Source of the DNA: Lachnospiraceae bacterium Zagget2
GTDB taxonomy: Bacteria; Bacillota; Clostridia; Lachnospirales; Lachnospiraceae
Direction: 5' to 3'
Length of the DNA stretch: 34,633 bases
NCBI GenBank assembly: GCA_001941045.1
Contig: MSHD01000024.1
Coordinates: 1-34,633, forward strand
This document shows positions 2,622-17,390 of this stretch, one piece after another (the first letter of the stretch is position 1; each line of letters starts with the position of its first letter). The notes under the pieces are model-generated. The model worked only from the letters and a program-made list of their open reading frames with translations. It ran no database searches and had not been told where the DNA came from. Made by a program: the position numbers and the translations under genes.

Positions 2622-2750
2622 AACACTTTTAAAAAATGAATTTGCCTTTGATTATCCGTGAAAATGGACAAAAACAAAGGTCTGATTCGCGTAAAACAGT
2701 GCTGATTATTATGCATGATTCACGAAAATAAGAAAAATTCAGGTGGTATA

Positions 2751-2779
2751 TTGAAAAAAATTACGGGCTGGTGTATGAT
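2751..2779 (+). promoter_or_regulatory. Promoter of the xylB-isomerase operon
   Basis: TTGAAA (2751-2756) and TATGAT (2774-2779) are 17 bases apart. Transcription would begin near 2786, about 46 bases before the chosen xylB start. This also argues against the longer upstream reading frame (ATG at 2715), whose start would precede the promoter. Confidence 0.7.
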
Positions 2780-2790
2780 GAACATAAAGA

Positions 2791-2806
2791 CCGTGCACGT
2801 GCACGG
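2791..2806. promoter_or_regulatory. Operator palindrome just downstream of the xylB transcription start
   Basis: CCGTGCACGTGCACGG is a perfect 16-bp inverted repeat. It starts about 5 bases after the predicted transcription start and ends before the ribosome binding site, the usual place for a LacI-family operator. The divergent LacI-type gene is the obvious candidate to bind it. Confidence 0.7.
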
Positions 2807-2831
2807 AAAAGGAAGCGAGGAGGGCTTGACT

Positions 2832-4301
2832 ATGTACTACATCGGAGTCGATCTGGGCACCTCAGCAGTGAAGCTGCTGCTGATGGACGGCGCGGGTCAG
2901 ATTTTGAAGATTGTCTCCCGGGAATATCCGATTTATTTCCCGCATCCGGGCTGGTCGGAGCAGAATCCGGAGGACTGGTATGCGCAGACGATGGCGGGTT
3001 TAAAAGAGCTGCTGAACGGCTTTGACGGCGGGCAGCTTGCCGGGATCAGCTTCGGCGGACAGATGCACGGCCTGGTGATTCTGGACAGCGAGGACCGCGT
3101 GATCCGCCCGGCGCTGCTCTGGAATGACGGGCGTACGTACGAAGAGTGCGATTATCTCAACAACGTCATCGGAAAAGAGAAGCTCTCGGAGTACACCGCG
3201 AATATTTCCTTTACCGGCTTCACCGCACCGAAGGTGCTCTGGGTGAAGAATAAGGAGCCGGAGAATTTCGCCCGCATCGCGAAGATCATGCTCCCGAAGG
3301 ACTACATCGCCTATCGCCTGACCGGTGTGCACTGCACGGACGTCTCGGACGCCTCGGGCATGCTGCTCTTTGATGTGAAGAACCGCTGCTGGTCACAGAA
3401 AATGCTGAAGATCTGCGGCATCCGCGAGGAGCAGATGGCGAAGGTCTATGAGTCCTACGAGACGGTCGGGACGCTGCTGCCGGAGGTAGCGGCGGAGCTC
3501 GGCGTGCCTGCGGGCGTGAAGGTGGCGGCGGGCGCCGGGGACAATGCGGCTGCTGCGGTCGGCACCGGCACGGTCGGCGAGGGCATGTGTAATATTTCTC
3601 TCGGCACGAGCGGCACGATCTTCATCTCCTCGGAGAAGTTCGGCGTGGACAGGAATAATGCGCTGCACGCTTTCGCTCATGCGGACGGACACTATCACCT
3701 GATGGGCTGCATGCTGAGCGCGGCCTCCTGCAATAAGTGGTGGCTCGGTGATATCATCGGGACAGAGGACTACGCGGCGGAGCAGGCGCAGATCACGAAG
3801 CTGGGCGAGAACCATGTTTACTTCCTGCCCTATCTCATGGGTGAGCGCTCCCCGCATAATAATCCGAACGCGCGGGGAACCTTTATTGGGATGACGATGG
3901 ATACGACACGCGCGGACATGACGCAGGCGGTGCTCGAAGGTGTGGCCTTCGCTCTTCGGGATTCCTTCGAAGTGGCGAAATCTCTGGGGATAAAGATCGA
4001 GCGCACGAAGATCTGCGGCGGCGGTGCGAAGAGCGCGCTCTGGAAGAAGATGATCGCGAACATCATGAATATCAAAGTGGACGTGGTCGAGAATGAGGAA
4101 GGTCCGGCGCTCGGCGGCGCGATGCTCGCGGCGGTGGCCTGCGGCGAGTACGCGAGCGTGGAGGAAGCGGCGGCGAAGCTGGTGCGGGTGATCGACACGG
4201 TGGAACCCGAGCCGGAGCTGGCAGCGAAGTATGAGGAGCGGTATCAGCAGTTCAGGCAGATTTACCCCGCCTGCAAACCGCTGTTTGAGATCATAAAGTA
4301 G
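2832..4301 (+). CDS. xylB: Xylulokinase-like FGGY carbohydrate kinase
   Basis: This is a 489-residue FGGY kinase, about the length of E. coli XylB (484). It starts MYYIGVDLGTSAVKLLLMD with the N-terminal phosphate-1 motif of the actin-like ATPase fold. GERSPHNNPNARG carries the FGGY signature area, and KICGGGAKSALWKKM near the C-terminus is the adenosine/hinge motif. The start at 2832 follows GAGGAGGG with a 7-base gap; the frame is open 39 codons further upstream, but that would begin before the predicted promoter. XylB phosphorylates D-xylulose at C5, but related FGGY kinases act on L-fuculose, L-rhamnulose or D-ribulose. Its partner here is a FucI/AraA-type isomerase rather than XylA, so the substrate is not certain. 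The isomerase follows after 12 bases in the same operon. Confidence 0.9.
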   Translation: MYYIGVDLGTSAVKLLLMDGAGQILKIVSREYPIYFPHPGWSEQNPEDWYAQTMAGLKELLNGFDGGQLAGISFGGQMHGLVILDSEDRVIRPALLWNDGRTYEECDYLNNVIGKEKLSEYTANISFTGFTAPKVLWVKNKEPENFARIAKIMLPKDYIAYRLTGVHCTDVSDASGMLLFDVKNRCWSQKMLKICGIREEQMAKVYESYETVGTLLPEVAAELGVPAGVKVAAGAGDNAAAAVGTGTVGEGMCNISLGTSGTIFISSEKFGVDRNNALHAFAHADGHYHLMGCMLSAASCNKWWLGDIIGTEDYAAEQAQITKLGENHVYFLPYLMGERSPHNNPNARGTFIGMTMDTTRADMTQAVLEGVAFALRDSFEVAKSLGIKIERTKICGGGAKSALWKKMIANIMNIKVDVVENEEGPALGGAMLAAVACGEYASVEEAAAKLVRVIDTVEPEPELAAKYEERYQQFRQIYPACKPLFEIIK

Positions 4302-4313
4302 GAGGATAACATC

Positions 4314-5798
4314 ATGAACAACATTCCCAAGGTAAAAGTCGGTATCGTGGCGGTCAGCCGCGACTGCTTCCCGGAGTCGCTCTCCGTGAACAGAAGAAAA
4401 GCGCTGGTGGACGCCTACGCGGTGAAGTACGACGCGGCGGACATCTATGAATGTCCGGTCTGCATTGTGGAGAGCGAGATCCACATGGTGCAGGCGCTGG
4501 AGGATATCAAGGCTGCAGGCTGCAACGCGCTGGCCGTCTATCTGGGCAACTTCGGACCGGAAATTTCCGAGACGCTGCTCGCGAAACACTTCGACGGTCC
4601 GAAGATTTTTGTCGCCGCCGCGGAGGAGAGCGGAAAGGATCTGGTCGGCGGACGCGGAGACGCGTACTGCGGCATGCTGAACGCGAGCTATAACCTGGCG
4701 CTGCGCAATATCAGGGCTTACATACCCGAGTACCCGGTCGGCACCGCCGATGAGTGCGCGGACATGATCCACGAGTTCCTGCCGATCGCGCGGGCGATCA
4801 TCGGTCTTTCCGAGCTGAAGATCATCAGCTTCGGTCCGCGTCCCTTAAATTTCCTTGCCTGCAACGCGCCTGTGAAGCAGCTCTACAACCTGGGCGTCGA
4901 GATCGAGGAAAACTCCGAGCTCGACCTCTTCGAGGCCTATCATAAGCATGACGGCGATCCGAGGATTCCGGAGGTCGCGGCTGACATGGCGGCGGAGCTC
5001 GGCGCGGGAAATAAGAAGCCGGAAGTGCTCGAAAAGCTTGCGAAGTATGAGTTGACGCTGCTTGACTGGATCGAGGAGCATCGCGGCTACCGCAAATATG
5101 TGGCGATCGCCGGCAAGTGCTGGCCGGCCTTCCAGACGCAGTTTGGCTTCGTGCCCTGCTATGTGAACAGCCGCCTGACCGGACGCGGCATTCCGGTATC
5201 CTGCGAGGTGGACATCTACGGAGCACTCAGCGAGTTCATCGGCACCTGTGTGAGCGACGATATCGTGACGCTGCTCGATATCAACAACACCGTGCCTTAC
5301 GACCTCTACAATGAGGACATCAAGGGAAAATTCGATTACTCCGCAACGGATGTCTTCATGGGCTTCCACTGCGGCAACACCTGCTCGAAGAAGCTATCCT
5401 CCTGTGAGATGAAGTACCAGTTCATCATGGCCAGAAGCCTTCCGGAGGAAGTGACGCAGGGCACGCTCGAGGGCGATATCGCACCGGGCGACATCACCTT
5501 CTATCGTCTGCAGAGCACGGCGGACAGCCAGCTGCGCGCCTACATTGCGAACGGCGAGGTGCTGCCCGTGGCGACGCGTTCCTTCGGCAGCATCGGAATC
5601 TTCGCGATTCCGGAGATGAAGCGCTTCTACCGTCATGTGCTGATCGAGGGCAATTTCCCGCATCACGGCGCGGTCGCCTTCGGTCACCATGGAAAGGCGC
5701 TGTACGAGGTCTTTAAGTACATTGGCGTGGATGTGAAGTACATTGGCTACAACCAGCCGGCGGGCGTGCGTTATCCGACGGAGAATCCCTTCGCCTGA
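4314..5798 (+). CDS. L-fucose/L-arabinose isomerase family protein
   Basis: This 494-residue protein belongs to the FucI/AraA aldose-ketose isomerase superfamily. The early residues (VGIVAVSRDCFPESLS) and the middle (ISFGPRPLNFLACN) fit the nucleotide-like folds of FucI. The probable metal site is visible: Glu298 in SCEVDIYGA, Asp322 in LLDINN and His450/His451 in NFPHHG. The Glu-Asp spacing of 24 residues equals that between Glu337 and Asp361 of E. coli FucI. It is shorter than FucI (591) and near AraA (500) in length. AGGAGG precedes the ATG. Such enzymes convert an aldose to a ketose with Mn2+, and the product would feed the adjacent FGGY kinase. Whether the substrate is L-fucose, L-arabinose, D-arabinose, D-xylose or a hexose cannot be told from sequence. 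Confidence 0.85.
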   Translation: MNNIPKVKVGIVAVSRDCFPESLSVNRRKALVDAYAVKYDAADIYECPVCIVESEIHMVQALEDIKAAGCNALAVYLGNFGPEISETLLAKHFDGPKIFVAAAEESGKDLVGGRGDAYCGMLNASYNLALRNIRAYIPEYPVGTADECADMIHEFLPIARAIIGLSELKIISFGPRPLNFLACNAPVKQLYNLGVEIEENSELDLFEAYHKHDGDPRIPEVAADMAAELGAGNKKPEVLEKLAKYELTLLDWIEEHRGYRKYVAIAGKCWPAFQTQFGFVPCYVNSRLTGRGIPVSCEVDIYGALSEFIGTCVSDDIVTLLDINNTVPYDLYNEDIKGKFDYSATDVFMGFHCGNTCSKKLSSCEMKYQFIMARSLPEEVTQGTLEGDIAPGDITFYRLQSTADSQLRAYIANGEVLPVATRSFGSIGIFAIPEMKRFYRHVLIEGNFPHHGAVAFGHHGKALYEVFKYIGVDVKYIGYNQPAGVRYPTENPFA

Positions 5799-5868: not shown

Positions 5869-6873
5869 ATGAAAAAGAGATGGATTAGTCTTTTCGCGCT
5901 CTTCACCCTGCTGGTGCTGAGCGGCTGCGGCTTTGCGTGGACGATATTTCATTCCGGAATCGGGGAGAGCGAGACCTGGGAGACCTATGAACGGCATTAC
6001 GCGCTGATTACGGACGGCACGGACAGCGAGCTTTGGGACCGAATTTACGAGAGCGCCCTTCTGGAGGGGAAGGAGCGGGGAATCTATGTGGAGCGTTTCG
6101 GCGAGAGCCTTGCAGTGTCCTACACGAGAAACCAGATTCTCGATCTGGCAATCCGGGCCTCCGTCGACGGCATCATCACGACCGGGGATGAGGATGAGGA
6201 GACGATCGCGCTGATCGACGAGGCGGTGGACGCCGGGATTCCGGTGGTGACCGTACTGCAGGACAGCACGGGGAGCCGCAGGCAGTGCTTCGTCGGCTGC
6301 AGCAACTACAGCATCGGGCAGGAATATGCCCGTCAGATACTGGATATGATCGAAGAGTCGGAAGATTCCGATATCCGGGATGTGATGGTGCTGCTGGACG
6401 CGGACGCCCAGGACGCCTCGCAGAATCTGATTCTTCTTGCCATCCGCGAGACGCTGGAGGAGAGCCTGGGCGCGGACGCTGCGGTCGTGGTAGAGAGCAC
6501 GGCGATTGACAACAGCAGGGATTTCAGCCCGGAGGAGTCGATCCGGGATATTTTCCTTAGTACGGAGGAACTGCCGGACATCCTGGTCTGTCTGAACGAG
6601 GTTTATACCCGCTGCGCCTATCAGGCGGCGGTAGATTATAATAAGGTCGGAGAGGTCGAAATTCTCGGCTATTACGATTCGGACGTGATACTGGAAGCGG
6701 TGTCGAAGGAAATCGTCGCCTCGACGATCACCTTTGACGCCGAGCAGATGGGCGCGCTGTGCGTGCAGGCGCTGGACGAGTACGACGAGACCGGCTATAC
6801 CAACAATTATCTGGCGGTCGACATCCGGCTGATTGGCTCCGCCCAGGCGGAGATGCTGCTGAGTGAGGAGTGA
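5869..6873 (+). CDS. Sugar-binding lipoprotein of the periplasmic-binding-protein type 1 fold, probable sensor partner of the histidine kinase
   Basis: This 334-residue protein has a short charged start (MKKRW), a hydrophobic segment and a lipobox LSGC with Cys20. The rest is a type 1 periplasmic-binding domain as in ribose/galactose/xylose-binding proteins: a sugar-facing motif region DGIITTGDEDEETIALIDEA, IPVVTVLQD, and FVGCSNYSIGQEYARQIL. The ATG at 5869 follows GGGAG closely and gives a proper signal peptide; the frame opens 12 codons earlier inside the hairpin. The gene ends 5 bases before the chosen histidine-kinase start. In clostridial XylFII-LytS systems a lipoprotein of this fold binds sugar outside the cell and activates LytS, which is the likely role here. 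It lacks the XylF-specific ERWQKDRD-like motif seen in the second lipoprotein at 9964, so it may recognise a different sugar. Confidence 0.8.
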   Translation: MKKRWISLFALFTLLVLSGCGFAWTIFHSGIGESETWETYERHYALITDGTDSELWDRIYESALLEGKERGIYVERFGESLAVSYTRNQILDLAIRASVDGIITTGDEDEETIALIDEAVDAGIPVVTVLQDSTGSRRQCFVGCSNYSIGQEYARQILDMIEESEDSDIRDVMVLLDADAQDASQNLILLAIRETLEESLGADAAVVVESTAIDNSRDFSPEESIRDIFLSTEELPDILVCLNEVYTRCAYQAAVDYNKVGEVEILGYYDSDVILEAVSKEIVASTITFDAEQMGALCVQALDEYDETGYTNNYLAVDIRLIGSAQAEMLLSEE

Positions 6874-6878
6874 GGACC

Positions 6879-8378
6879 GTGAAGACAGTGAGCCGAAAAC
6901 TGAACAATCTCACACTGCAGCAGAAGCTGACGCTGCTCTTTGCGCTGACGACGGCGATCGTGCTGCTGGTCAATCTGTGCATCTATGTGGTAATCAACTA
7001 CATGACCGGGCGGGTCGAGCAGGTCTATGTCAGCAATGTGAGCCTCAATGATCTGGGCGACGCGCTGGACGACGTGCAGGAGAGCATGGAGGATTACCTG
7101 AATACGAAGAGCACGGAAGCGCTGGAGTCCTATTACCGCAGCGACCAGGCTTATCGGGATCTGCTTGCGGAGCTGAACACGCAGGCCACGGACAATCCGA
7201 TTCTGCTGGCGCAGAAGAATATCCGCAATCTTTCTTTCAGCTATCTGGATACGGCCTCGGAGGTCGTTCAGGCAAAGCGGAACCGGAATGCGGAGCTCTA
7301 CGGTACGCTCTATGAGGAGGCCGCCGCGCTCTGCGACGAGATCCACACCTACGTCTACAGTCTGAACAACGAGCAGTTCAAGGCAAATGCGGACACCTAC
7401 CAGACCCTCCGCCGTTCCCTGCAGGGGATGGAGCTTTTCAGTCTGGTCGTGCTGATTGTCGTGATTCTCGGAAGTACCGTTGTGATTCTGGTAACGACGC
7501 GATCGGCGATCGCCCCGCTGCACCAGCTCGCGAAGTCCGCGAACGAGGTGGCGAAGGGAAATTTTGACATTCAGAAGGTAGAGGTACACAGTGCGGACGA
7601 GGTCGGCATCGTGGCGGGCGCCTTCAACCAGATGGTTGTGAGTATCCGCGACTACATTGAGCAGCTGCGGGAAACGATGGAGCATGAGACGGAGATGATG
7701 GAGCGCGAGCTGATGATGCAAAGCCATCTGAAGGACGCACAGCTCAAGTACTATCAGGCGCAGATCAACCCGCATTTCCTTTTTAACACGCTCAACGCGG
7801 GGGTGCAGCTCGCGATGATGGAGGGAGCTGAAAGGACCGAGTGTTTTCTGGAAAATACAGCGGAATTTTTCCGCTATAATGTCCGCATGAACGGAAAGGA
7901 CGCGGCCCTCGCGGACGAGATCCGGCTGGTTGATAACTATGTCTACATCCTGAATGTTCGTTTTTCCGGGGAAATTCTGTTCCAGAAGGAGATCGACGAG
8001 AGTCTTCTCGACGTGCGTGTGCCGAGCATGATCCTGCAGCCAATCGTCGAGAATTCCGTCAACTACGGAATCCGCGGGCTGGACCGCGAGGGGCGTATCG
8101 AGCTGGACGTCTATCAGGAGGGAAATTCGATCTGCGTCAGCATCTGGGACAATGGAAACGGCATGGAGGAAGCGCGCATCCGCGAGGTGCTCGAAGGGGA
8201 TATTCAGAGCGACCCGGCCACATCCGGATCGAACGGCGTGGGACTGCGGAACGTGATGGAGCGGCTGCAGCTCTATTATAAAGAAGGCGCGAAGCTGGAG
8301 ATTTTAAGCGAAGGCAAGGATAAAGGGACGGAGATCCTGATCACCATACCGAAGGAGGGAAGCGCATGTACCGTGTGA
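6879..8378 (+). CDS. LytS/YesM-type sensor histidine kinase
   Basis: This 499-residue membrane kinase has TM1 at about 18-42, an extracytoplasmic alpha-helical region of about 140 residues, and TM2 at about 186-207. A HAMP domain (about 208-262) and a His_kinase domain with QAQINPHFLFNTLNAG (phosphoacceptor His299) follow. A HATPase_c domain shows the N box (IVENSVNYGI), DNGNGM and GVGLRNVMERL. I chose the GTG at 6879, which has GAGGAG 8 bases upstream; an earlier GTG at 6870 overlaps the preceding stop but sits directly on that ribosome binding site. The tight spacing suggests translational coupling with the lipoprotein gene. Kinases of this class pair with YesN regulators and often sense sugars through an external binding protein. 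Confidence 0.92.
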   Translation: MKTVSRKLNNLTLQQKLTLLFALTTAIVLLVNLCIYVVINYMTGRVEQVYVSNVSLNDLGDALDDVQESMEDYLNTKSTEALESYYRSDQAYRDLLAELNTQATDNPILLAQKNIRNLSFSYLDTASEVVQAKRNRNAELYGTLYEEAAALCDEIHTYVYSLNNEQFKANADTYQTLRRSLQGMELFSLVVLIVVILGSTVVILVTTRSAIAPLHQLAKSANEVAKGNFDIQKVEVHSADEVGIVAGAFNQMVVSIRDYIEQLRETMEHETEMMERELMMQSHLKDAQLKYYQAQINPHFLFNTLNAGVQLAMMEGAERTECFLENTAEFFRYNVRMNGKDAALADEIRLVDNYVYILNVRFSGEILFQKEIDESLLDVRVPSMILQPIVENSVNYGIRGLDREGRIELDVYQEGNSICVSIWDNGNGMEEARIREVLEGDIQSDPATSGSNGVGLRNVMERLQLYYKEGAKLEILSEGKDKGTEILITIPKEGSACTV

Positions 8379-9967
8379 TATTAGCGGACGACGAGGGGAT
8401 TGTACTTGATTCCCTGAAAATGATCATAGAGAAGAACTTTCCGGGGCAGTGTCAGATCGAGACGGCCCGGACCGGACGCGCGGTGATCGAGCTCTCGGAG
8501 CGTCTTGTGCCGGACATCATTTTCATGGATATTCAGATGCCCGGTATCAACGGCATGGAAGCGATCCGGGAGATCCGGAAGAACAATCCGGCGGTGGAAT
8601 GCATCATCCTGTCGGCCTACGACAAGTTTGACTACGCGAAGGAGGCCATCAACCTGGGCGTGCTCGAGTACATGAACAAGCCCTTTAGCTCCGCCGTCAT
8701 CGTCGAGGTGATGGAGCGGGCGATGCGCAGCGTCGATTCCAGGCGCCAGAAGCGCAGCGAAAACCTGCTGATCAAGGAGAAGATGGAGACGGTCGCTCCC
8801 ATTATCGAAAATGGTTTTATCTACGCGATGCTGTTTCAGGAATATTCCGCGGAGGACACGGAGAACTACAAGCTTCTGCTGAACCTGAAGGCGGAATACG
8901 GCTGCATGCTGGTGTTTGTCATGGGGGACGACCAGAAGGGCAGCCGTATGACGAACGCGGTCGGCGCCGGCGTGCGGACGCAGATGAACTACCCGCGGGT
9001 GCGCGAACTCATCAAGGAGACCTTCCCGGGCAGCGTCGTCGGATCGGTGCTCTCGAACCGGATACCGGTCTTCCTCCCGATGGAGAAGACCCGCATCGGA
9101 TATGAGGAGCGCATCGCCATGATCGACACCTGCCGGGAGCTGGCGCGCAGGTTGAAGCGCAGCATGGATATCGCCTTTCGCATCGGCATCGGCCAGATCC
9201 GGAGCCTGGGCGAGAGCATGGAGTCCTACGAGGAGGCGCTCAAGGCGCTCGCGAGCTCGACCGGCAGCGTCGCCCATGTGGATGATCTGCCCATTCAGTG
9301 CCGTTACGACGAGGAATATCCAATAGAGCTCGAGCGCAGGCTCTTCGAGAAGCTGAAAAAGGGAGCGGTCGAGGACTGTGAGCGCAGCGCCGGGGAATAC
9401 TTTGACTGGATGCTGGCAAATTACGATGAGCAGGACGAGAACGTGCGCCTGAAGATTCTGGAGTTCGTGCTCTGGGCGGAGCATGAGGCTTACATGAACG
9501 CGGGACTCGACTATCACTTCAGTGATAGAGGAAGTTATCTCGAGCTGGTGACCGGAGCGGAGAAAAACAGCGACCTGCGCGGCTGGTTTGTCGGAAAATT
9601 CGCGGATGCGAGCCGGAATATGTCCGCGAAGAACACCGTGCGGGAAAATCAGCTCGTGGCCAGGGCGAAGAACTATATTCAGGAGAATTTTCAGAAGGAT
9701 CTCTCACTCGACGAGATGTCGAAGGAGCTCGATATCAGCCCTTATTATTTCAGCAAGCTGTTCAAGGAGGAGACCGGAAGTAATTTTGTGGAGTATGTGA
9801 CCGGTCTTCGCATCGAGCGGGCAAAGCAACTCCTGGCGGACGAGACGCTGAGCATGAAGGAAATCTGCGCGCAGATTGGTTACAGCGATCCGAATTATTT
9901 CAGCCGTATTTTCAAAAAACACACGGGCGTGACGCCGACGGAATTCCGGGGAGGGGAGAAGCGATGA
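8366..9967 (+). CDS. YesN-type response regulator with AraC DNA-binding domain
   Basis: This is a 533-residue regulator. The receiver domain (1-120) has Asp8/Asp9 in the acidic pocket, phosphoacceptor Asp55 in FMDIQMPG, and a conserved Lys in MNKPFSS. A long middle region of about 300 residues, usual in YesN proteins, links to two AraC helix-turn-helix motifs at about 430-530 (LSLDEMSKELDISPYYFSKL and LSMKEICAQIGYSDPNYFSR). The start overlaps the kinase gene by 13 bases, with GGAGGGAAG just upstream, so the two are made together. A likely target is the importer promoter near 11122-11150, where repeated TCCTGT elements are found; that link is inference from position. Confidence 0.93.
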   Translation: MYRVILADDEGIVLDSLKMIIEKNFPGQCQIETARTGRAVIELSERLVPDIIFMDIQMPGINGMEAIREIRKNNPAVECIILSAYDKFDYAKEAINLGVLEYMNKPFSSAVIVEVMERAMRSVDSRRQKRSENLLIKEKMETVAPIIENGFIYAMLFQEYSAEDTENYKLLLNLKAEYGCMLVFVMGDDQKGSRMTNAVGAGVRTQMNYPRVRELIKETFPGSVVGSVLSNRIPVFLPMEKTRIGYEERIAMIDTCRELARRLKRSMDIAFRIGIGQIRSLGESMESYEEALKALASSTGSVAHVDDLPIQCRYDEEYPIELERRLFEKLKKGAVEDCERSAGEYFDWMLANYDEQDENVRLKILEFVLWAEHEAYMNAGLDYHFSDRGSYLELVTGAEKNSDLRGWFVGKFADASRNMSAKNTVRENQLVARAKNYIQENFQKDLSLDEMSKELDISPYYFSKLFKEETGSNFVEYVTGLRIERAKQLLADETLSMKEICAQIGYSDPNYFSRIFKKHTGVTPTEFRGGEKR

Positions 9968-11013
9968 GAAAGGTCTATATGCTGGCCGCGCTGGTCGGGG
10001 CGCTGGCCGTACTCACGGCCTCCTGCGCGCAGGAGAACCGGCAGAGCACGCAGGAGGAGCAGGATTCTTCGGTGCAGATCGGGATTACCTTCGACTCCTT
10101 CGTCAACGACCGCTGGCTGCGTGACCGCGACGTTTTCGTGTCGGCGGCGCAGGAGCTGGGCGCAGAGGTCAATGTGCAGAGTGCGAACGGGGATTTGAGC
10201 GAGCAGGTCGCGCAGGTGGACTATTTCATACAGAAGAAGATGGACGTGATCGTGATTGTCCAGGTGGCGAGCGGCGAAGAGGTCGATGACCTGGTGGATG
10301 CCGTGACGCGCGCCAAAAAGGCGGGAATTCCAGTCATCTGCTATGATCGTCTGATTCTGAATGCGGACGCGGACCTCTACATTTCCTTTGATAATGTGGA
10401 GGTCGGGCGTCTGATGGCCGAGCACATGGTAGAGCATCTTAATGGGGAGGGCTCCATTATCCAGATCTGCGGGCCGCTTGTAGACTACAACGTGCCGCAG
10501 GTTATGAGCGGCTTTGAGGAGGTGCTCGGAGAAAGCGATATCGAGATCGAGCTGGTGGAGCACGCGGATGAGTGGAAACCGGAGGTTGGTTTTTCCGTGA
10601 CGGAAAGTTATCTGGACAACATGGGGGTTGGAGAAAGCCTTGCGGGAATCATGTGCGGAAATGACGGCCTGGCCGGGCAGGCGATTCGCGCCCTCTCGGA
10701 ACGTCGACTCGCGGGAAGTGTTTGTGTCGTCGGGCAGGATGCCGATCTGGAGGCCTGTCAGCGGATCGTGGAGGGAACGCAGTGTATGACGGTCTATAAG
10801 CCGGTCGAGCAGCTTGCCAGACGCGCGGAGGAACTGGCGATGGAACTCGCGCAGGACGGAAGCATCGAGACAGAGGAGACGATCAGCGACGGAAGCTACG
10901 ATATTCCTTATGAGAAGCTCGAACCGGTCGCCGTGACGAAGGAAAATATGGACGAGGTCATCACGGGAAAGTATCACGAGGAGAGCGATATCTACCGGAA
11001 TGTCCGGAATTAG
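9964..11013 (+). CDS. XylF-like D-xylose-type binding lipoprotein, second candidate sensor
   Basis: This 349-residue lipoprotein has a signal peptide ending TASC (Cys21) and a type 1 periplasmic-binding domain. Several stretches closely follow E. coli XylF: NDRWLRDRDVFVSAAQELGA, VQSANGDLSEQVAQVDYFI, VICYDRLI, and LYISFDNVEVGRLMAEHM. The RW..DRD motif and the YDRLI aspartate contact xylose in XylF. It overlaps the regulator gene by 4 bases (ATGA), so it is cotranslated with the sensor system rather than with the importer, which has its own binding protein. This fits the XylFII concept: a XylF paralogue devoted to signalling. It may alternatively deliver sugar to the importer. A terminator follows 21 bases after the stop. 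Confidence 0.85.
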   Translation: MRKVYMLAALVGALAVLTASCAQENRQSTQEEQDSSVQIGITFDSFVNDRWLRDRDVFVSAAQELGAEVNVQSANGDLSEQVAQVDYFIQKKMDVIVIVQVASGEEVDDLVDAVTRAKKAGIPVICYDRLILNADADLYISFDNVEVGRLMAEHMVEHLNGEGSIIQICGPLVDYNVPQVMSGFEEVLGESDIEIELVEHADEWKPEVGFSVTESYLDNMGVGESLAGIMCGNDGLAGQAIRALSERRLAGSVCVVGQDADLEACQRIVEGTQCMTVYKPVEQLARRAEELAMELAQDGSIETEETISDGSYDIPYEKLEPVAVTKENMDEVITGKYHEESDIYRNVRN

Positions 11014-11034
11014 AGAAGAACAGGATTTTTTTGC

Positions 11035-11076
11035 ACAGGACAGATTTACGGAGCGTAAATTTGTCCTGTTTTTTTT
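11035..11076 (+). terminator. Rho-independent terminator of the sensor operon
   Basis: Arms 11035-11049 and 11055-11069 pair over 15 bp with one wobble around a 5-base loop, and eight T follow (11069-11076). It ends the isomerase-sensor transcription unit ahead of the importer genes. Its right arm is itself one copy of the 17-bp repeat described next. Confidence 0.85.
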
Positions 11077-11135
11077 AAAAAAAGAAGGTGCAGTCCTGTG
11101 CAAAATGTACAGAAAAGCGCAAATTTGTCCTGTTT
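11055..11135. repeat. Direct repeats with TCCTGT core upstream of the importer
   Basis: The 17-mer GTAAATTTGTCCTGTTT (11055-11071) recurs with one change at 11119-11135. A further TCCTGT is at 11094-11099, and inverted copies (ACAGGA) are at 11020 and 11035. The forward cores start at 11064, 11094 and 11128, spaced about three helical turns apart. This is typical of sites for AraC-type regulators, which bind direct repeats. Confidence 0.55.
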
Positions 11136-11150
11136 CTTTCGTGATATAGT
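11122..11150 (+). promoter_or_regulatory. Activator-type promoter of the sugar importer operon
   Basis: A good -10 TATAGT (11145-11150) lacks a matching -35 at 17 bases (AATTTG). The -35 position is occupied by the second TCCTGT repeat. A promoter with a weak -35 covered by a repeat is what an AraC-type activator would need. Confidence 0.55.
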
Positions 11151-11181
11151 GAAGCTATCAAAAAAAGGAGGAACCTTAAAG

Positions 11182-12378
11182 ATGAAAAGAAAATTACTTA
11201 GTGTAATGCTCATTGCTGCAATGACAGCAGCGCTGACAGCCTGCGGCAGCAGCTCTTCTTCGAACTCCAGCTCGACCGAGGAGGCTTCGAGCGAGGCGGC
11301 TGAGGAGAGCACAGACGAGGGCGGGGAGACTTCCACGGAAGCGACCAGCCAGAAGATCGGTATCTCGATGCCGACGCAGTCTCTGGAGCGCTGGAACCGT
11401 GACGGCGCCTATCTGGATGAGCAGTTCCAGAATGCCGGTTATGAGACCATCCTGACCTACTCCGACAATGATTCCGGACAGCAGGTCAACGACATCCAGA
11501 ACATGCTGGCTGACAATGTAGACCTTCTGATCGTGGCGGCCATCGACGGAGAGGCTCTGAACACTGCCATGGACGAGGCGGCCGAGGCCGGCGTACCGGT
11601 TATCGCTTATGACCGTCTGATCATGAACGATGCGGTTTCCTACTATGTATCTTTCGATAACTACACGGTTGGAAAGCTGCAGGGCGAGTTCATTGTGGAA
11701 ACGCTTGATCTTGAAAACGCGGGCGACGCGACCTACAACATGGAGATCACCGCTGGTGATCCGGCGGACAACAACGCGGGCTATTTCTACAATGGCGCTA
11801 TGGATGTGCTGAATCCGTACATTGAGGCCGGCACGCTGGTCGTCGTATCCGGACAGACTGACTTTGACACGGTTGCGACCGATCAGTGGAGCACCGATAC
11901 CGCTCTTGAGAGAGCGCAGAACGTGCTTTCTTCCTACTATGCGGACGGCACGCAGCTTGATGTGTGGCTCTGCTCGAATGACTCCACTGCTCTTGGCGTA
12001 GCGCAGGCAGTTACCTCCGACTATGCGGGCAGCAACAGCGTGCTGATCACCGGTCAGGACGGCGACGAGGCAAACCTTGCGAACATTGTGGACGGCGTGC
12101 AGACCATGACTGTGTACAAGAACGTCAGCAACGAGTCCATCGTTACGCTTTCTCTGGCTCAGGCGATCCTGAACGGCGAGACCATCGACGAGTCCCTGAT
12201 CGATTCCTTCGGCATCGACTGCGCGTATGATACGGAGTCCTATGAGACCTCTGATGGCAATAAGTGCCCGTCCTTCCTGCTTGTACCGTCCGTTATCACT
12301 GCGGACAATCTCCAGGAGCTTGTCGACACCGGTCTCTATGAGATGGGCGATGACGGATATCTGAAGGCAGTTCAGTAA
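11182..12378 (+). CDS. chvE: ChvE-type multiple-monosaccharide-binding lipoprotein
   Basis: This 398-residue lipoprotein has signal peptide MKRKLLSVMLIAAMTAALTA and Cys21. A Ser/Glu-rich tether of about 35 residues follows, then a type 1 binding domain: IGISMPTQSLERWNRDGAYL, PVIAYDRLIMN, SYYVSFDNYTVGKLQGEFIV and WLCSNDSTALGVAQAV. The SLERWNRDG and long insertion pattern is that of Agrobacterium ChvE, which binds several aldoses. AAAGGAGG precedes the ATG at 11182; the frame is open earlier, but through the promoter repeats. It is the first gene of the importer operon and is separated from the ATPase gene by a strong hairpin, as expected for a binding protein made in excess. Confidence 0.9.
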   Translation: MKRKLLSVMLIAAMTAALTACGSSSSSNSSSTEEASSEAAEESTDEGGETSTEATSQKIGISMPTQSLERWNRDGAYLDEQFQNAGYETILTYSDNDSGQQVNDIQNMLADNVDLLIVAAIDGEALNTAMDEAAEAGVPVIAYDRLIMNDAVSYYVSFDNYTVGKLQGEFIVETLDLENAGDATYNMEITAGDPADNNAGYFYNGAMDVLNPYIEAGTLVVVSGQTDFDTVATDQWSTDTALERAQNVLSSYYADGTQLDVWLCSNDSTALGVAQAVTSDYAGSNSVLITGQDGDEANLANIVDGVQTMTVYKNVSNESIVTLSLAQAILNGETIDESLIDSFGIDCAYDTESYETSDGNKCPSFLLVPSVITADNLQELVDTGLYEMGDDGYLKAVQ

Positions 12379-12395
12379 AAAAAGTTAACCTGAAA

Positions 12396-12424
12396 AAAGG
12401 GCGGGGCTTCTGTCCCGCCCCTTT
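12396..12424 (+). terminator. GC-rich hairpin between binding protein and ATPase genes
   Basis: Arms 12396-12405 and 12414-12424 pair (7 G/C pairs, one bulged C, then 3 A/T pairs) around an 8-base loop. No real U-run follows, so it is probably an attenuator or 3'-end stabiliser that lowers expression of the downstream ATPase and permease relative to the lipoprotein. Confidence 0.6.
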
Positions 12425-12455
12425 CCAGTGAGAAGGTAAGAAAGGAGGAAAATTT

Positions 12456-13991
12456 TTGGCTGATATTATTCTGGAGATGAAATCCATCACCAAAGAGTTT
12501 CCGGGTGTAAAAGCGCTGGACGACGTCAATCTGGTCGTAGAGCGCGGCGAGATCCACGCGCTGATCGGTGAGAACGGCGCGGGAAAATCCACGCTGATGA
12601 ATGTCCTGTCCGGCATCTATCCGGTCGGCAGCTATACGGGGGAGATTTACTACAACGGAAAGCTCTGCGAGTTCAAGACGCTCAAAGACAGCGAGGCAGA
12701 GGGCATCGTGATCATTCACCAGGAGCTGGCGCTGATCCCGCTTCTGACGATCGGCGAGAACATGTTCCTGGGAAATGAAAAGAAAAATAAATACGGCAAT
12801 ATCGACTGGGACCAGACCTACAACGAGGCCGAAAAGCATATGGCGCAGGTGGGGCTTCATGAGTCGGCCCAGACGCTGATCAAGGATATCGGTACCGGAA
12901 AGCAGCAGCTGGTTGAGATTGCGAAGGCCTTCTCGAAGAACGTGAAGCTGCTGATTCTGGATGAGCCGACTTCTTCCCTGAACGACGAGGATGCGAAGAT
13001 GCTCCTCGATCTTCTGATGGAATTTAAGAAAGACGGTCTGACCTCGATCATTATCACGCATAAGCTGAATGAGATTATCTACTGCGCGGACAAGGCGACG
13101 ATCATCCGTGACGGTTCGACGATCGAGACGCTGGTCAAAGGCGTGGACGAGTTCAGTGAGGACCGCATCATCAAGGGAATGGTCGGACGCCCGATGGACG
13201 ACCGCTATCCGGCGCGTGAGCACAATGTGAGTCTGGAAGTGAGTCTGGAGGTGAAGAACTGGACGGTTCATCATCCGCTCTATCATGAGAAGGTTGTCGA
13301 CGACAATATTTCCTTCAATGTACATAAGGGCGAGGTCGTAGGCTTCTCCGGACTGCAGGGGGCAGGCCGCACGGAGCTTGCGATGTCGATCTTCGGAAAG
13401 AGCTACGGGACGGATATCACGGGCGAACTGTATCTGAACGGAGAGAAGGTAGACCTGAAGACGCCGGAACAGGCGATTCACCACAAGATCGCTTACGTGA
13501 CGGAGGATCGAAAGACGAACGGTCTGATCCTCGGAGAGTCGATCCGCTTTAACACAACGCTGGCACGGCTTGACAAGGTCTGCTCGAACGGCGTGATCGA
13601 TACCGCGGCGGAGATGAAGGCCGCGGACGATATGACGGCGGAGATGGGAACAAAGACGCCGTCCATCGAGCAGAAGGTCGGCAACCTCTCCGGCGGCAAC
13701 CAGCAGAAAGCGCTGCTCGGCAAGTGGATGTTCGCGGAGCCGGACATTCTGATTCTGGATGAACCGACGCGTGGTATCGACGTCGGCGCGAAGTATGATA
13801 TTTGCTGCCTGATCAATCAGATGGTCGCAAACGGGAAATCTGTGATCATGATTTCCTCAGAGATGCCGGAGCTGATCGGCATGTGCGACCGCATCTACGT
13901 CATGAACGAGGGAGAGCTCCGCGGCGAGCTGGACGCGAAGGAAGCAACGCAGGAGAAGATCATGAGCTATATCATCAGCGCTGACAATTAG
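12456..13991 (+). CDS. gguA: Sugar ABC importer ATPase with two nucleotide-binding domains
   Basis: This 511-residue protein is a tandem ABC ATPase of the monosaccharide (MmsA/GguA/XylG) type. Domain 1 has Walker A GENGAGKST (38-46), a signature-region variant GTGKQQLVEIAK and Walker B LLILDEPTSSLN. Domain 2 has the degenerate Walker A GLQGAGRTE (no lysine, usual in this family), LSGGNQQK and LILDEPTRGIDVG. The start is a TTG at 12456, chosen because AAAGGAGGAA lies 7 bases before it; the first ATG is 7 codons later and has no such site. It powers uptake of the sugar delivered by the upstream lipoprotein. Confidence 0.93.
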   Translation: MADIILEMKSITKEFPGVKALDDVNLVVERGEIHALIGENGAGKSTLMNVLSGIYPVGSYTGEIYYNGKLCEFKTLKDSEAEGIVIIHQELALIPLLTIGENMFLGNEKKNKYGNIDWDQTYNEAEKHMAQVGLHESAQTLIKDIGTGKQQLVEIAKAFSKNVKLLILDEPTSSLNDEDAKMLLDLLMEFKKDGLTSIIITHKLNEIIYCADKATIIRDGSTIETLVKGVDEFSEDRIIKGMVGRPMDDRYPAREHNVSLEVSLEVKNWTVHHPLYHEKVVDDNISFNVHKGEVVGFSGLQGAGRTELAMSIFGKSYGTDITGELYLNGEKVDLKTPEQAIHHKIAYVTEDRKTNGLILGESIRFNTTLARLDKVCSNGVIDTAAEMKAADDMTAEMGTKTPSIEQKVGNLSGGNQQKALLGKWMFAEPDILILDEPTRGIDVGAKYDICCLINQMVANGKSVIMISSEMPELIGMCDRIYVMNEGELRGELDAKEATQEKIMSYIISADN

Positions 13992-14010
13992 AGGAAAGGG
14001 GTATAAAGTT

Positions 14011-15207
14011 ATGTCGACGAAAAAAGAAACTCAGGACGGCGCCCAGTTAAACCTGGGGGCGTTTTTGACCAGATACAGCATGGTCATCGCTCTTGTCGTT
14101 GTATTTATTCTGTTTTATTTCCTGACCGGCGGGCGTCTTCTGTACGCGCAGAACATGTCCAATCTGCTGCTGCAGAACGGCTACGTGCTGGTCATGGCCT
14201 GTGGTATGCTGCTCTGCATCCTGACCGGAGGCAACATCGATCTGTCGGTCGGTTCCGTGATCTGCCTGGTCGGCGGCGTCGCGGCGGTGCTGATCTCGAA
14301 TCAGGGATTTAATGTATATCTGACGATCATCATCTGTCTGCTGCTCGGTCTCGCGGCCGGCGTCTGGCAGGGTTACTGGATCGGCTATGTCCGCATTCCG
14401 CCGTTCATCACGACGCTGGGCGGCATGTTCATGTTCCGCGGCTTTGGCCGACTCGTGCTGAACAGCAAGACCGTGTCGGTGCAGAATGCGGCTTTCCTGA
14501 ACATTTTTACCGCATACATCAAGATTCCGGGTCTTGACAATGATTCACGGATTCTTTCCCCGCTGGTGATCGGAGTGATCGTCGTTCTGTTTCTGTTCTA
14601 CAGTACGATTTCCTCGCGTGCGAAGAAGGCGAAGAAGGGCTACCGCCAGAACAGTGCGCTTGCGGATTTCGGCCGTACGATCCTGATCTCGGCCGTGCTT
14701 CTGTTCTACTGCTATCAGCTGACACAGTACAAGGGAGTCTCTGTCATGCTTATCTGGGTTGTGGCGATCTGCCTGATTTACAATTTCATCACCTCCAAGA
14801 CCGCTTTTGGACGTTATTTCTACGCGGTCGGCGGCAATGAGAAGGCAACGCAGCTCTCCGGTATCAATACGAACAAGGTTTACTTTATCGCCTACGCGAA
14901 CATGGGTCTTCTGGCAGGCTTATGCGGCCTCCTGTGCCTGGCGCGTGTCGGTTCTGTGAACGGTTCGACCGGTACCTCCTTTGAGATGGACGCCATCGGC
15001 TCCTGCTTCATCGGCGGCGCATCCGCCTACGGCGGCAGTGGTACGATTCCCGGCGTCATCATCGGCGCGCTCCTGCTCGGCGTCATCAACATGGGCATGT
15101 CGATCATGGGTATCGGCGATTCCTGGCAGTATGTCGTCAAGGGCGGCGTGCTTCTGATCGCCGTTATCTTCGACGTGGTATCCAGCCGCAAGAGCGGAAC
15201 GCGCTAA
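14011..15207 (+). CDS. gguB: Sugar ABC importer permease, GguB/XylH type
   Basis: This 398-residue polytopic membrane protein has about ten hydrophobic segments. Family hallmarks include LLCILTGGNIDLSVGSVICL, IGYVRIPPFITTLGGMFMFRG and FYAVGGNEKATQLSGINTNK, plus the C-terminal run ASAYGGSGTIPGVIIGALLLG. Its length matches the GguB/XylH subgroup (about 390-400), which is longer than RbsC (about 320). It forms the channel for the two-domain ATPase encoded 19 bases upstream. GAAAGGGG lies before the ATG. Confidence 0.92.
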   Translation: MSTKKETQDGAQLNLGAFLTRYSMVIALVVVFILFYFLTGGRLLYAQNMSNLLLQNGYVLVMACGMLLCILTGGNIDLSVGSVICLVGGVAAVLISNQGFNVYLTIIICLLLGLAAGVWQGYWIGYVRIPPFITTLGGMFMFRGFGRLVLNSKTVSVQNAAFLNIFTAYIKIPGLDNDSRILSPLVIGVIVVLFLFYSTISSRAKKAKKGYRQNSALADFGRTILISAVLLFYCYQLTQYKGVSVMLIWVVAICLIYNFITSKTAFGRYFYAVGGNEKATQLSGINTNKVYFIAYANMGLLAGLCGLLCLARVGSVNGSTGTSFEMDAIGSCFIGGASAYGGSGTIPGVIIGALLLGVINMGMSIMGIGDSWQYVVKGGVLLIAVIFDVVSSRKSGTR

Positions 15208-15217
15208 GGTGAATGAT

Positions 15218-15838
15218 ATGGAAATTAAAAAAGTGACAGACTCCGCCTTCCGGAAATATGGGCGGATCGTGCAGAATATTGATTTCTCCGGGCTGGTGGA
15301 GGCGCTGAAGGAGACGCCGCTGCCGGACGACGTGGTCTACGAGCCTTCCGTGGAGGAGCTCGAGAAACTGCCGGTATTCGGAGAAATGCAGACGAAATGC
15401 TACGGCGAGCTGCCGATCCAGATCGGCTACTGCAACGGAAAGAATTACCTCCTGAACGCGCTGGAGTATCACCGTTCCTCTGAGATCAACGTGATGGGGA
15501 CGGACGCGATCCTTCTCGTGGGCTCGCAGCAGGATGTGACGGACGATTTCACCTACGACACCTCTCTGGTTGAGGCTTTCCTCGTGCCGAAGGGGACGGC
15601 AGTCGAGCTCTACGCGACAACGCTTCACTACGCGCCGTGCAGCGCTCAGAAAAGCGGTTTCCAGGTGGCGGTCGTGCTGCCGAAAGATACGAACCTGCCG
15701 CTCGAGGCATCCCACGAGGGCTGGGAGGACCGGCTGCTTACCGCAAAGAATAAGTGGCTCATTGGACACCCGGAGGGCGGCCTGCCCGAGGGCTCGCCGC
15801 TGGGACTTGTTGGAGAGAACCTTTCAGTGAAAGCGTAA
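15218..15838 (+). CDS. DUF4867 family protein, cupin-like, function unknown
   Basis: This 206-residue protein is one I recognise as the DUF4867 type. The start at 15218 is preferred over a GTG at 15209 because AAGGTGA lies 5 bases before it, just after the permease stop. The middle reads like a one-domain cupin/ureidoglycolate-lyase-type barrel: LEYHRSSEINV (His85, Glu89), then VEAFLVPKGTAVELYATTLHYAPC (Glu119, His137). Such spaced His/Glu residues could form a metal site as in cupin sugar isomerases. No function is established to my knowledge. As last gene of the importer operon it probably acts on the imported sugar or its ketose form, which is inference. Confidence 0.8.
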   Translation: MEIKKVTDSAFRKYGRIVQNIDFSGLVEALKETPLPDDVVYEPSVEELEKLPVFGEMQTKCYGELPIQIGYCNGKNYLLNALEYHRSSEINVMGTDAILLVGSQQDVTDDFTYDTSLVEAFLVPKGTAVELYATTLHYAPCSAQKSGFQVAVVLPKDTNLPLEASHEGWEDRLLTAKNKWLIGHPEGGLPEGSPLGLVGENLSVKA

Positions 15839-15973: not shown

Positions 15974-15987
15974 ATAGAGGTGTGGAA

Positions 15988-16665
15988 ATGAGTAATATGA
16001 TTTTATATCACGGCTCACCTGTGATTGTTGAGCGACCTGAGTTTGGCAAAGGGAAAAGCTACAATGATTATGGGAGAGGTTTTTACTGCACGGAGCATGT
16101 GGAACTGGCAAAAGAATGGTCCTGCGGCGAAGATACGGATGGATATGCCTGTCGTTACACATTAAATACGGATGATCTTTGCATTCTGAACCTCTCTGAC
16201 GATAAATTTACGATTCTGAACTGGCTTGCGATCCTCGTTCAGAACAGAAAAGCACGTCTTTCCACACCCATTGCCAAACGGGGCAGAGACTGGCTGATTC
16301 AGAACTTTATGCCGGATTACAGCTCTTATGATCTGATTATCGGATATCGGGCAGACGATTCTTATTTTTCGTTTGCACGATCCTTCCTGTCCAATGAGAT
16401 TTCCCTGTCCCAGCTTGAGCATGCCATGCGGCTCGGAAAACTCGGAGAACAGTATGTTCTGAAAAGCGCAAAGGCTTTTGATGCGATTCATTTCTGCAGC
16501 TATGAGCCAGCGGACAATCGAATTTATTATGAGAAGCGCAGGAAAAGAGATGAGGAAGCCCGCACAGCTTACTACCGGGTTCTGGAGACCGACGATATAA
16601 ACGGTATTTTTATGCGGGATATTCTCAGAGAGGAGATGAAGGTCAATGATCCCCGCTTACTCTGA
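15988..16665 (+). CDS. DUF3990 protein, probable ADP-ribosyltransferase-fold toxin
   Basis: This is a 225-residue protein. The opening ILYHGSPVIVERPEF, then SYNDYGRGFYCTEHVELAKE, is the DUF3990 pattern, which resembles the His...Tyr motifs of ADP-ribosyltransferase folds (HGS for NAD, G.GFY.T for the second strand). A later KSAKAFDAIHFCSYEP may supply the third conserved element. The start at 15988 has AGAGG 7 bases upstream; a GTG two codons earlier is possible. It overlaps the next gene by 20 bases, so the two are coupled, with the presumed toxin first. Base use is visibly more A/T-rich than the sugar locus, suggesting acquisition. The target is unknown. Confidence 0.8.
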   Translation: MSNMILYHGSPVIVERPEFGKGKSYNDYGRGFYCTEHVELAKEWSCGEDTDGYACRYTLNTDDLCILNLSDDKFTILNWLAILVQNRKARLSTPIAKRGRDWLIQNFMPDYSSYDLIIGYRADDSYFSFARSFLSNEISLSQLEHAMRLGKLGEQYVLKSAKAFDAIHFCSYEPADNRIYYEKRRKRDEEARTAYYRVLETDDINGIFMRDILREEMKVNDPRLL

Positions 16666-17299
16666 ACAATATCTGCATGACGCGATGCGCAATCTTGGCG
16701 AAGCTTTTGACTATGCGGCAAATGCCTGTATGATGGATATGGATGATTTCATGCATTTGTTTCTGGCAAGTGGCTATGGAGACGGATTCGGCAAGGGCAG
16801 CCCCGGAGTTATTGTCGGTATGTCCGGCACAGAACTGGCAATGGCCGTTATTTCCAGATCCGGAAAGAAAATGGCGTTTCCCGATGCACAGACAGAATAC
16901 GAGTGTTCTGCCGAATACTGGTGCGGCTGGATTCTGGCATTTTACCAGTGGGAAACCGGTCTGTCATTCAGAGACATCAACGATTATATTTCCATGAAGG
17001 ATATCTATAAACTATATCCCACACTGCATGAAGCAGCGGAGGAAAAGTTTACGGACACTGTGAATGCCCTCCTTGCTAAAAGAACTGCCTCTACAAGACT
17101 GCAATCCAGACGGAAAATTGTGGGCATGACGCAGGCAGAGCTTTCCAGGAGATCAGGGGTCAATCTGAGAACTCTGCAGCAATATGAATCAGGAGCAAAG
17201 AGCATTAACAAGGCCTCCGTACAGAATGTATCCGCCCTTGCAGGGGCGCTTGGATGTGGAATAGACGATATTCTGGAGTTTTCTCTGATGATGTCCTGA
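16646..17299 (+). CDS. XRE-type helix-turn-helix protein with N-terminal partner domain, probable antitoxin
   Basis: This is a 217-residue protein. The C-terminal 70 residues are a classic XRE/Cro-type DNA-binding domain (GMTQAELSRRSGVNLRTLQQ then YESGAKSINKAS). The N-terminal 140 residues (MRNLGEAFDYAANACMMDMD, and a Trp/Tyr-rich YWCGWILAFYQWETGLSFRD) form a separate domain that I take to contact the toxin, though this is inference. AGGAG lies 10 bases before the ATG, inside the toxin gene. The inverted repeat over the promoter at 15928-15951 is its likely binding site. Confidence 0.8.
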   Translation: MIPAYSEQYLHDAMRNLGEAFDYAANACMMDMDDFMHLFLASGYGDGFGKGSPGVIVGMSGTELAMAVISRSGKKMAFPDAQTEYECSAEYWCGWILAFYQWETGLSFRDINDYISMKDIYKLYPTLHEAAEEKFTDTVNALLAKRTASTRLQSRRKIVGMTQAELSRRSGVNLRTLQQYESGAKSINKASVQNVSALAGALGCGIDDILEFSLMMS

Positions 17300-17390
17300 C
17301 AGGACAAGCTGGTCGGTCTGGATGAGGATTAAAAAGGTGATTGATGCCATAAACGCCAACGCGATAACAGGAGAAAAGGAGACTGAAGAC

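What the first reader, a model, noticed from the sequence alone, without database searches (positions are those of the whole stretch)
5869..15838. Sugar sensing system with two binding lipoproteins around one LytS/YesN pair
The order lipoprotein, histidine kinase, AraC-type regulator, XylF-like lipoprotein, then a separate ChvE-type importer, is seen directly, with overlaps or very short gaps among the four sensor genes. Clostridial XylFII-LytS-YesN systems use one extracellular XylF paralogue to switch LytS. Here two different binding-fold lipoproteins are coupled to the same kinase, and only the second (9964) carries the XylF-type RW..DRD and YDRLI motifs. They may sense two sugars, act as positive and negative sensors, or form a heteromeric complex with the kinase ectodomain. 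I am not aware of a described dual-sensor version.
Basis: partly seen in the sequence, partly recalled or inferred. Interest (0 to 1): 0.75.

Follow-up and report, generated by a model that had tools for sequence, protein, structure and literature searches.

The report
Sugar sensor with two binding proteins
Many gut and plant-degrading bacteria carry a four-gene sugar sensor in which the binding protein next to the kinase has lost its sugar-binding residues and a second binding protein, which keeps them, probably reads the sugar instead.

Summary
Four coupled genes (5869-11013, +) encode SBP1, a LytS-type kinase, a YesN-type regulator and SBP2; a ChvE/GguAB-type importer follows. This is a recurrent cassette. 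In 120 genomes of the same family, 31 carry SBP1 and all 31 also carry SBP2. Checked copies lie in nine families of the phylum, and in a tenth with the kinase frame in two pieces.

SBP1, not SBP2, is the counterpart of XylFII. In the cassettes SBP1 has lost the sugar pocket: of four canonical residues, 108 of 118 keep none, while 27 of 29 single-sensor relatives keep all four. SBP2 keeps ten of eleven XylF pocket positions in 116 of 116 sequences, the eleventh in 111. SBP2 belongs with the kinase: it overlaps the regulator gene, is set apart from the importer by a gap and often a terminator, forms its own clade, and co-varies with SBP1 and the kinase more than with the importer.

Best reading: a four-component sensor in which SBP1 is a non-sugar-binding adaptor and SBP2 the sugar reader. 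Physical contact is inferred, not shown. No description was found in the open-access library. New variant of a known kind.

The parts
5869..6873 (+). SBP1: XylFII/GanP/AraP-type binding-fold protein that has lost the canonical sugar-pocket residues (L130, I188, Y269, F289 at those columns); proposed kinase-bound adaptor
6870..8378 (+). LytS-type histidine kinase; extracytoplasmic stretch about 43-190 with residues typical of dual-SBP systems (K136 R137 and others)
8366..9967 (+). YesN-type response regulator (receiver, GGDEF_2, AraC HTH)
9964..11013 (+). SBP2: XylF-type lipoprotein with intact pocket; proposed sugar-reading subunit of the sensor
11035..11069 (+). Terminator-like hairpin with T-run that ends the sensor operon
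11102..11150 (+). Candidate activator site AAAATGTACAGAAAA...CAAATTTGTCCTG and -10-like TATAGT (11145-11150) before the importer, conserved in close relatives
11182..12378 (+). ChvE-type importer binding lipoprotein (a third SBP)
12456..13991 (+). GguA-type importer ATPase
14011..15207 (+). GguB-type importer permease
15209..15838 (+). DUF4867 protein, also seen beside XylB and the isomerase in other loci
2715..4301 (+). XylB-type xylulokinase (TIGR01312 above cut-off), probable metabolic partner
4314..5798 (+). Aldose isomerase with Fucose_iso_C domain, 70 nt upstream of SBP1

Best explanation
The four genes form one sugar sensor with a division of labour. SBP1 is a descendant of the XylFII/GanP/AraP-type sensing protein. 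It stays with the LytS-type kinase at the membrane but no longer binds sugar in the usual way. SBP2 is a XylF-derived lipoprotein recruited from an importer; it keeps the sugar pocket, most likely for D-xylose or a similar aldopyranose. Sugar-loaded SBP2 docks on the SBP1-kinase complex (a mixed pair replacing the sugar-bound SBP pair of XylFII-LytS), the kinase phosphorylates the YesN-type regulator, and the regulator turns on the separately transcribed importer. Shown by computation: the conserved cassette, pocket loss in SBP1 and retention in SBP2, grouping of SBP2 with the sensor in operon, tree and co-variation, and residues typical of this architecture in all three proteins. Inferred: physical contact, sugar identity, sign of the signal, the target promoter.
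For: Cassette: SBP2 accompanies SBP1 in 31 of 31 genomes with SBP1 among 120 of the family. The run SBP1-HK-RR-SBP2 is complete in 117 of 129 loci examined; of these L234 is a single-sensor locus and L236/L253 are look-alikes, so 114. SBP1: of four canonical residues 108 of 118 dual sequences keep 0, 8 keep 1, 2 keep 3 (the look-alikes); 27 of 29 single-sensor sequences keep 4. One residue is XylFII D103, mutated to Ala in PDB 5xsd. SBP2: ten of eleven XylF pocket positions 116 of 116, the eleventh 111 of 116 (look-alikes included). Operon: RR-SBP2 gap at most 20 nt in 103 of 117 (median -4); SBP2-importer gap at least 60 nt in 93 of 95; terminator-like hairpin in 51 of 95 against 7 of 95 in a coding control and 1 of 95 shuffled. 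Tree: 36 of 38 cassette SBP2 in one clade, 100/100. Co-variation (89 cassettes): SBP2-SBP1 0.87, SBP2-importer SBP 0.64, importer SBP-GguA 0.96; partial SBP1-SBP2 0.38, reached in 0 of 2000 permutations. Signature residues in HK, SBP1 and SBP2 rare in single systems.
Against: No complex could be modelled and no binding measured. SBP1 could bind some other ligand in its changed cleft. The partial SBP2-kinase-ectodomain correlation (0.17) is weaker than SBP1-SBP2 or SBP1-ectodomain, and the SBP2-importer SBP partial correlation is 0.20 until GguA is also controlled. Loss of D103 is not strictly tied to a second sensor: L235 and L241, counted as single systems, have lost it too, and L222 and L224 keep it although dual. 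Nearly all losses trace to one clade, so the 118 sequences are not independent. The pocket positions of SBP2 are also conserved in ChvE-type importer proteins, so they do not fix the sugar. Signature positions were picked and counted on the same sequences. A terminator-like hairpin was not found in 44 of 95.
Confidence: 0.58

Rival explanations
1. Two independent sensors: SBP1 and SBP2 each bind a different ligand and act on the same kinase, one perhaps negatively. SBP1's changed cleft binds a new, possibly non-sugar ligand.
For: SBP1 is not decaying: it has residues near-invariant in dual systems and rare in single ones (E222, E223, T247, N258, V260), and a confident model with the two-lobe fold.
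Against: The D103 column is filled by many residues across cassettes (L 48, M 13, Y 13, E 8, S 6, R 6 and others of 118), unlike a pocket selected for one new ligand; the D215-type column is more uniform (Y 87 of 118), which leaves this rival open.
Confidence: 0.2
2. SBP2 is only a second importer protein feeding the GguAB permease, with high affinity or other specificity, and is not part of the sensor.
For: SBP2 is XylF-type, and XylF normally feeds a GguAB-like pair; in nine single-sensor loci XylF stands right before GguA.
Against: The importer has its own SBP in 92 of the 93 runs in which GguA follows within four genes (the other is the single system L234). SBP2 stays when importer genes lie upstream (L094, L151, L155, L159, L179) or none of GguA/GguB type is seen downstream in the stretch held (L135, L157, L158, L229). 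Operon gap, terminator, tree and co-variation separate it from the importer.
Confidence: 0.15
3. SBP2 is a decoy or buffer that competes with the importer SBP for sugar, or a remnant of an older xylFGH-type operon without present function.
For: Tree position next to XylF importers of single-sensor loci.
Against: SBP2 is more conserved than SBP1 (52% against 37% mean column identity), its pocket is nearly invariant, and it has its own signature residues.
Confidence: 0.05

Closest known systems
XylFII-LytS-YesN of Clostridium beijerinckii (PDB 5xsd, 5xsj, 5xss)
   Same: SBP with a LytS-type kinase and YesN-type regulator, controlling sugar import; SBP1's nearest relative in the PDB by profile (9e-45)
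   Different: One sensing SBP with D103 in its pocket (D103A is the mutant of 5xsd); here SBP1 has Leu at that position and a second, XylF-type SBP is coupled to the sensor operon. The C. beijerinckii locus itself was not seen here
GanP and AraP of Geobacillus stearothermophilus (PDB 6gq0, 6sw4)
   Different: GanP and AraP bind sugar themselves; single sensing SBP (role partly from PMC10384115, partly recalled)
CuaDSR of Ruminiclostridium cellulolyticum (PMC10384115, passages read)
   Same: Three-component sensing; two SBPs in the system
   Different: One SBP senses and the other transports; here the transporter has a third SBP of its own
Arabinose locus of Parageobacillus thermoglucosidasius (PMC13068155, passages read)
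   Same: A TCS between a non-lipoprotein Peripla_BP_4 protein and a ChvE-like SBP with its importer
   Different: No XylF-type protein between the TCS and the importer SBP is mentioned in the passages
XylF/ChvE importer binding proteins
   Same: SBP2 has their pocket
   Different: SBP2 is encoded, inherited and probably transcribed with the kinase, not with an ATPase and permease

Membership tests
XylFII/GanP/AraP-LytS-YesN three-component sensors | SBP gene directly before a LytS-type kinase and a YesN-type regulator | tested here: met
XylFII/GanP/AraP-LytS-YesN three-component sensors | Upstream SBP closest to XylFII, GanP, AraP | tested here: met
XylFII/GanP/AraP-LytS-YesN three-component sensors | Upstream SBP keeps the sugar-binding residues including D103 | tested here: not met
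   window has L130, I188, Y269, F289; 108 of 118 dual sequences keep none of four
XylFII/GanP/AraP-LytS-YesN three-component sensors | A single sensing SBP, the other SBP belonging to the importer | tested here: not met
   by gene order, gaps and tree, not by function:
XylFII/GanP/AraP-LytS-YesN three-component sensors | SBP binds the kinase ectodomain | not testable with these tools
   no complex prediction available
XylF importer binding proteins (SBP2) | XylF-type sequence and pocket | tested here: met
   below the NCBIfam equivalog cut-off (246 of 390 bits)
XylF importer binding proteins (SBP2) | Encoded as the binding protein of an adjacent ATPase and permease | tested here: not met
   importer has its own SBP
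ChvE/GguA/GguB importer (11182-15207) | NCBIfam equivalog models | tested here: inconclusive
   best hits but all three under cut-off: 333/460, 790/810, 433/450

The most novel reading that the evidence does not exclude
A four-component sensory class widespread in Bacillota, in which a pseudo-receptor (SBP1, a binding-fold protein that lost its ligand pocket) is the kinase-bound adaptor and presents a freely moving lipoprotein sugar reader (SBP2), so that signalling arises from a mixed SBP1-SBP2 pair on the kinase.
Probability: 0.5. Interest if true: 0.72.

Novelty: new variant of a known kind. Interest (0 to 1): 0.6.

Why it matters
About a quarter of sampled genomes of the family (31 of 120), whose named relatives are mostly Lachnospiraceae, many of gut or rumen origin, carry this cassette, so it is a common way to decide which sugar importer to make. 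If right, annotation that assigns ligands to the SBP next to the kinase names the wrong protein, and a binding-fold protein has become a pure signalling adaptor, much as pseudokinases did. It makes a clear prediction: SBP1 does not bind sugar, SBP2 does, and both are needed.

Tried and rejected
Rejected: that SBP2 is the XylFII counterpart; that the finding is a local accident; that SBP2 is a plain importer protein. A second origin of the dual order (L236, L253) looked like independent support, but both lack the signature residues of kinase, SBP1 and SBP2, keep 3 of 4 SBP1 pocket residues and group with L235, counted as single, so I treat them as look-alikes. They stay inside the raw counts: both and in the 117; L253 has its importer upstream and so is not in the 95.

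Led nowhere: finding the C. beijerinckii locus itself (searches gave at most 42% identity to XylFII); the PNAS paper on XylFII-LytS is not held; the crystallised LytS ectodomain is not among the 60 of 67 PDB rows shown for the kinase profile at E 0.01; a TGT-repeat operator was not general (6 of 95).
Full report
What is there. The window (contig C24 of its genome; SBP2 90-91% identical in two Lachnospiraceae MAGs) carries SBP1 5869-6873, a LytS-type kinase 6870-8378, a YesN-type regulator 8366-9967 and SBP2 9964-11013, each overlapping the next. A terminator-like hairpin lies at 11035-11069, then a promoter-like stretch conserved in close relatives, then a ChvE/GguA/GguB-type importer (11182-15207) and DUF4867. 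Upstream are a xylulokinase and a Fucose_iso_C isomerase.

Conservation. Of 120 genomes of the family, 31 hold SBP1 at E <= 1e-15 and 34 hold SBP2 at E <= 1e-30. All 31 with SBP1 have SBP2: 29 about 4 kb downstream on the same contig, one cut by a contig end (L067, first 92 residues seen) and one split over two contigs (L086/L087). The four SBP2 genomes without SBP1 are weaker XylF-like matches (1e-31 to 1e-48). Named hosts include Robinsoniella, Butyrivibrio, Agathobacter, Anaerosporobacter, Porcincola, and MAGs labelled Christensenella and Saccharofermentans. In 348 genomes of the phylum, loci fetched and checked show the intact order in nine letter-coded families (f1, f12, f29, f45, f60, f72, f95, f96, f101), in f90 with the kinase in two ORFs (L246), broken in a second f96 genome (L230), and as look-alikes in f31 and f93. 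In all, 129 loci were put through one script: 117 have SBP1-HK-RR-SBP2 in a row (one of them, L234, the single-sensor type), 12 do not: nine are cut by contig ends, L130 is a lone SBP2, L230 is broken, L235 has another ORF and a 940-nt gap before its XylF.

Pocket test. Four columns were followed in 118 cassette SBP1, 29 SBP1 of systems with one sensing SBP, and 11 importer SBPs: XylFII D103, a conserved Arg, and the positions that correspond, from memory, to D215 and Q235 of ribose-binding protein. D103 is the residue changed to Ala in 5xsd (letters, title). Kept, of four: cassette 0 in 108, 1 in 8, 3 in 2; single 4 in 27, 2 in one (L235), 0 in one (L241); importer 4 in 9, 2 in 2. The two with 3 are the look-alikes L236 and L253; L222 and L224 are dual and keep D103 alone. 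In the window the residues are L130, I188, Y269, F289. In SBP2, positions that correspond to E. coli XylF R16, W17, D90, R91, D135, N137, W169, D197, D222 and K242 (roles recalled) are the same in 116 of 116, and N196 in 111. The same positions are conserved in nine ChvE-type importer proteins of that call, so they mark an intact pocket, not a particular sugar. Twenty of the 29 single systems come from one family (f31), chosen from the best XylFII matches.

SBP2 belongs with the sensor. The RR-SBP2 gap is at most 20 nt in 103 of 117 (median -4); the SBP2-importer gap is at least 60 nt in 93 of 95 (median 178, by longest ORF); a hairpin with T-run of -10 kcal/mol or better follows SBP2 in 51 of 95, against 7 of 95 after the regulator stop and 1 of 95 shuffled. 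In nine single-sensor loci where XylF is the importer protein, the RR-XylF gap is 158-940 nt in seven and -7 and 15 in two. SBP2 of the cassettes form one clade (36 of 38, 100/100; the other two are the look-alikes) apart from XylF importers. The importer varies: 10 of 28 importer SBPs in the family set score under 170 bits to the window's ChvE, the rest 261-501. Distance correlations in 89 full cassettes (look-alike L236 may be among them): SBP2 with SBP1 0.87, with RR 0.85, with kinase ectodomain 0.82, with importer SBP 0.64; importer SBP with GguA 0.96. With RR and kinase core held constant: SBP1-SBP2 0.38, SBP1-ectodomain 0.30, SBP2-ectodomain 0.17, SBP2-importer SBP 0.20; the last falls to 0.00 when GguA is also held, the others stay. 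Permutations ignore relatedness, so these are indications.

A shared signature. Residues near-invariant in dual systems and rare or absent in single ones occur in the kinase ectodomain (10 positions; K136 and R137 in 0 of 27 single kinases), in SBP2 (8 positions, against 9 XylF importers) and in SBP1 (12 positions, at most 17% in singles). They were picked on the same sequences, so their number is not a test; that they recur in families far from the window's, and that L236 and L253 lack all three sets, is informative. SBP1 is therefore under selection, not decaying. The window itself departs at kinase 138 (N) and SBP2 106 (E).

Mechanism. In XylFII-LytS the SBP contacts helices H3/H4 of the kinase's four-helix ectodomain (PMC9769921, passages), and ligand can assemble two SBP-kinase pairs into a tetramer (PMC10384115, passages). 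The same passages say that in the C. beijerinckii and G. stearothermophilus systems one SBP senses and the other takes up the substrate. Here the transport SBP is a third protein. The simplest model is that SBP1 keeps the kinase contact and SBP2 supplies the sugar-dependent partner. That contact, the sugar and the direction of the signal are inference.

Known or new. Searches for XylFII, LytS/YesN in Lachnospiraceae, two solute-binding proteins with a kinase, four-component systems, and XylF with LytS found no such system in the listings; passages of three papers were read. The library is open-access only, so this is weak evidence of absence.

Noticed in passing
window 2715-5798 and 15209-15838: XylB, Fucose_iso_C isomerase and DUF4867 flank the sensor; the same three genes recur near cassettes L065, L066, L076, L083: an aldose module of unknown sugar.
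   Followed up: partly
window 11102-11150: Conserved AAAATGTACAGAAAA / CAAATTTGTCCTG / TATAGT before the importer in close relatives; a partly similar stretch at 2661-2674 before xylB (two mismatches to the first half).
   Followed up: partly
L241 (G394:C35): SBP1-HK-RR followed by ORFs of 419, 309 and 291 aa, with the SBP1 pocket lost (HQGN): maybe a parallel case with another importer type.
   Followed up: no
L246 (G420:C1:104500-124400): Two HK-RR-SBP2 sets around one XylF-GguA-GguB importer on the other strand; one kinase reads in two ORFs.
   Followed up: no
L130 (JAQVCT010000003.1): A lone SBP2-like gene with no kinase or importer recognised in the 15 kb held.
   Followed up: no
L230 (G460:C1): A cassette with broken regulator, ATPase and permease frames.
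   Followed up: no
L096 (G099:C1): A second, diverged dual cassette in a genome that already has one.
   Followed up: no
window 15982-18869: DUF3990 protein, HTH_3 protein and a sigma-70-like protein with a long C-terminal extension in a row.
   Followed up: no
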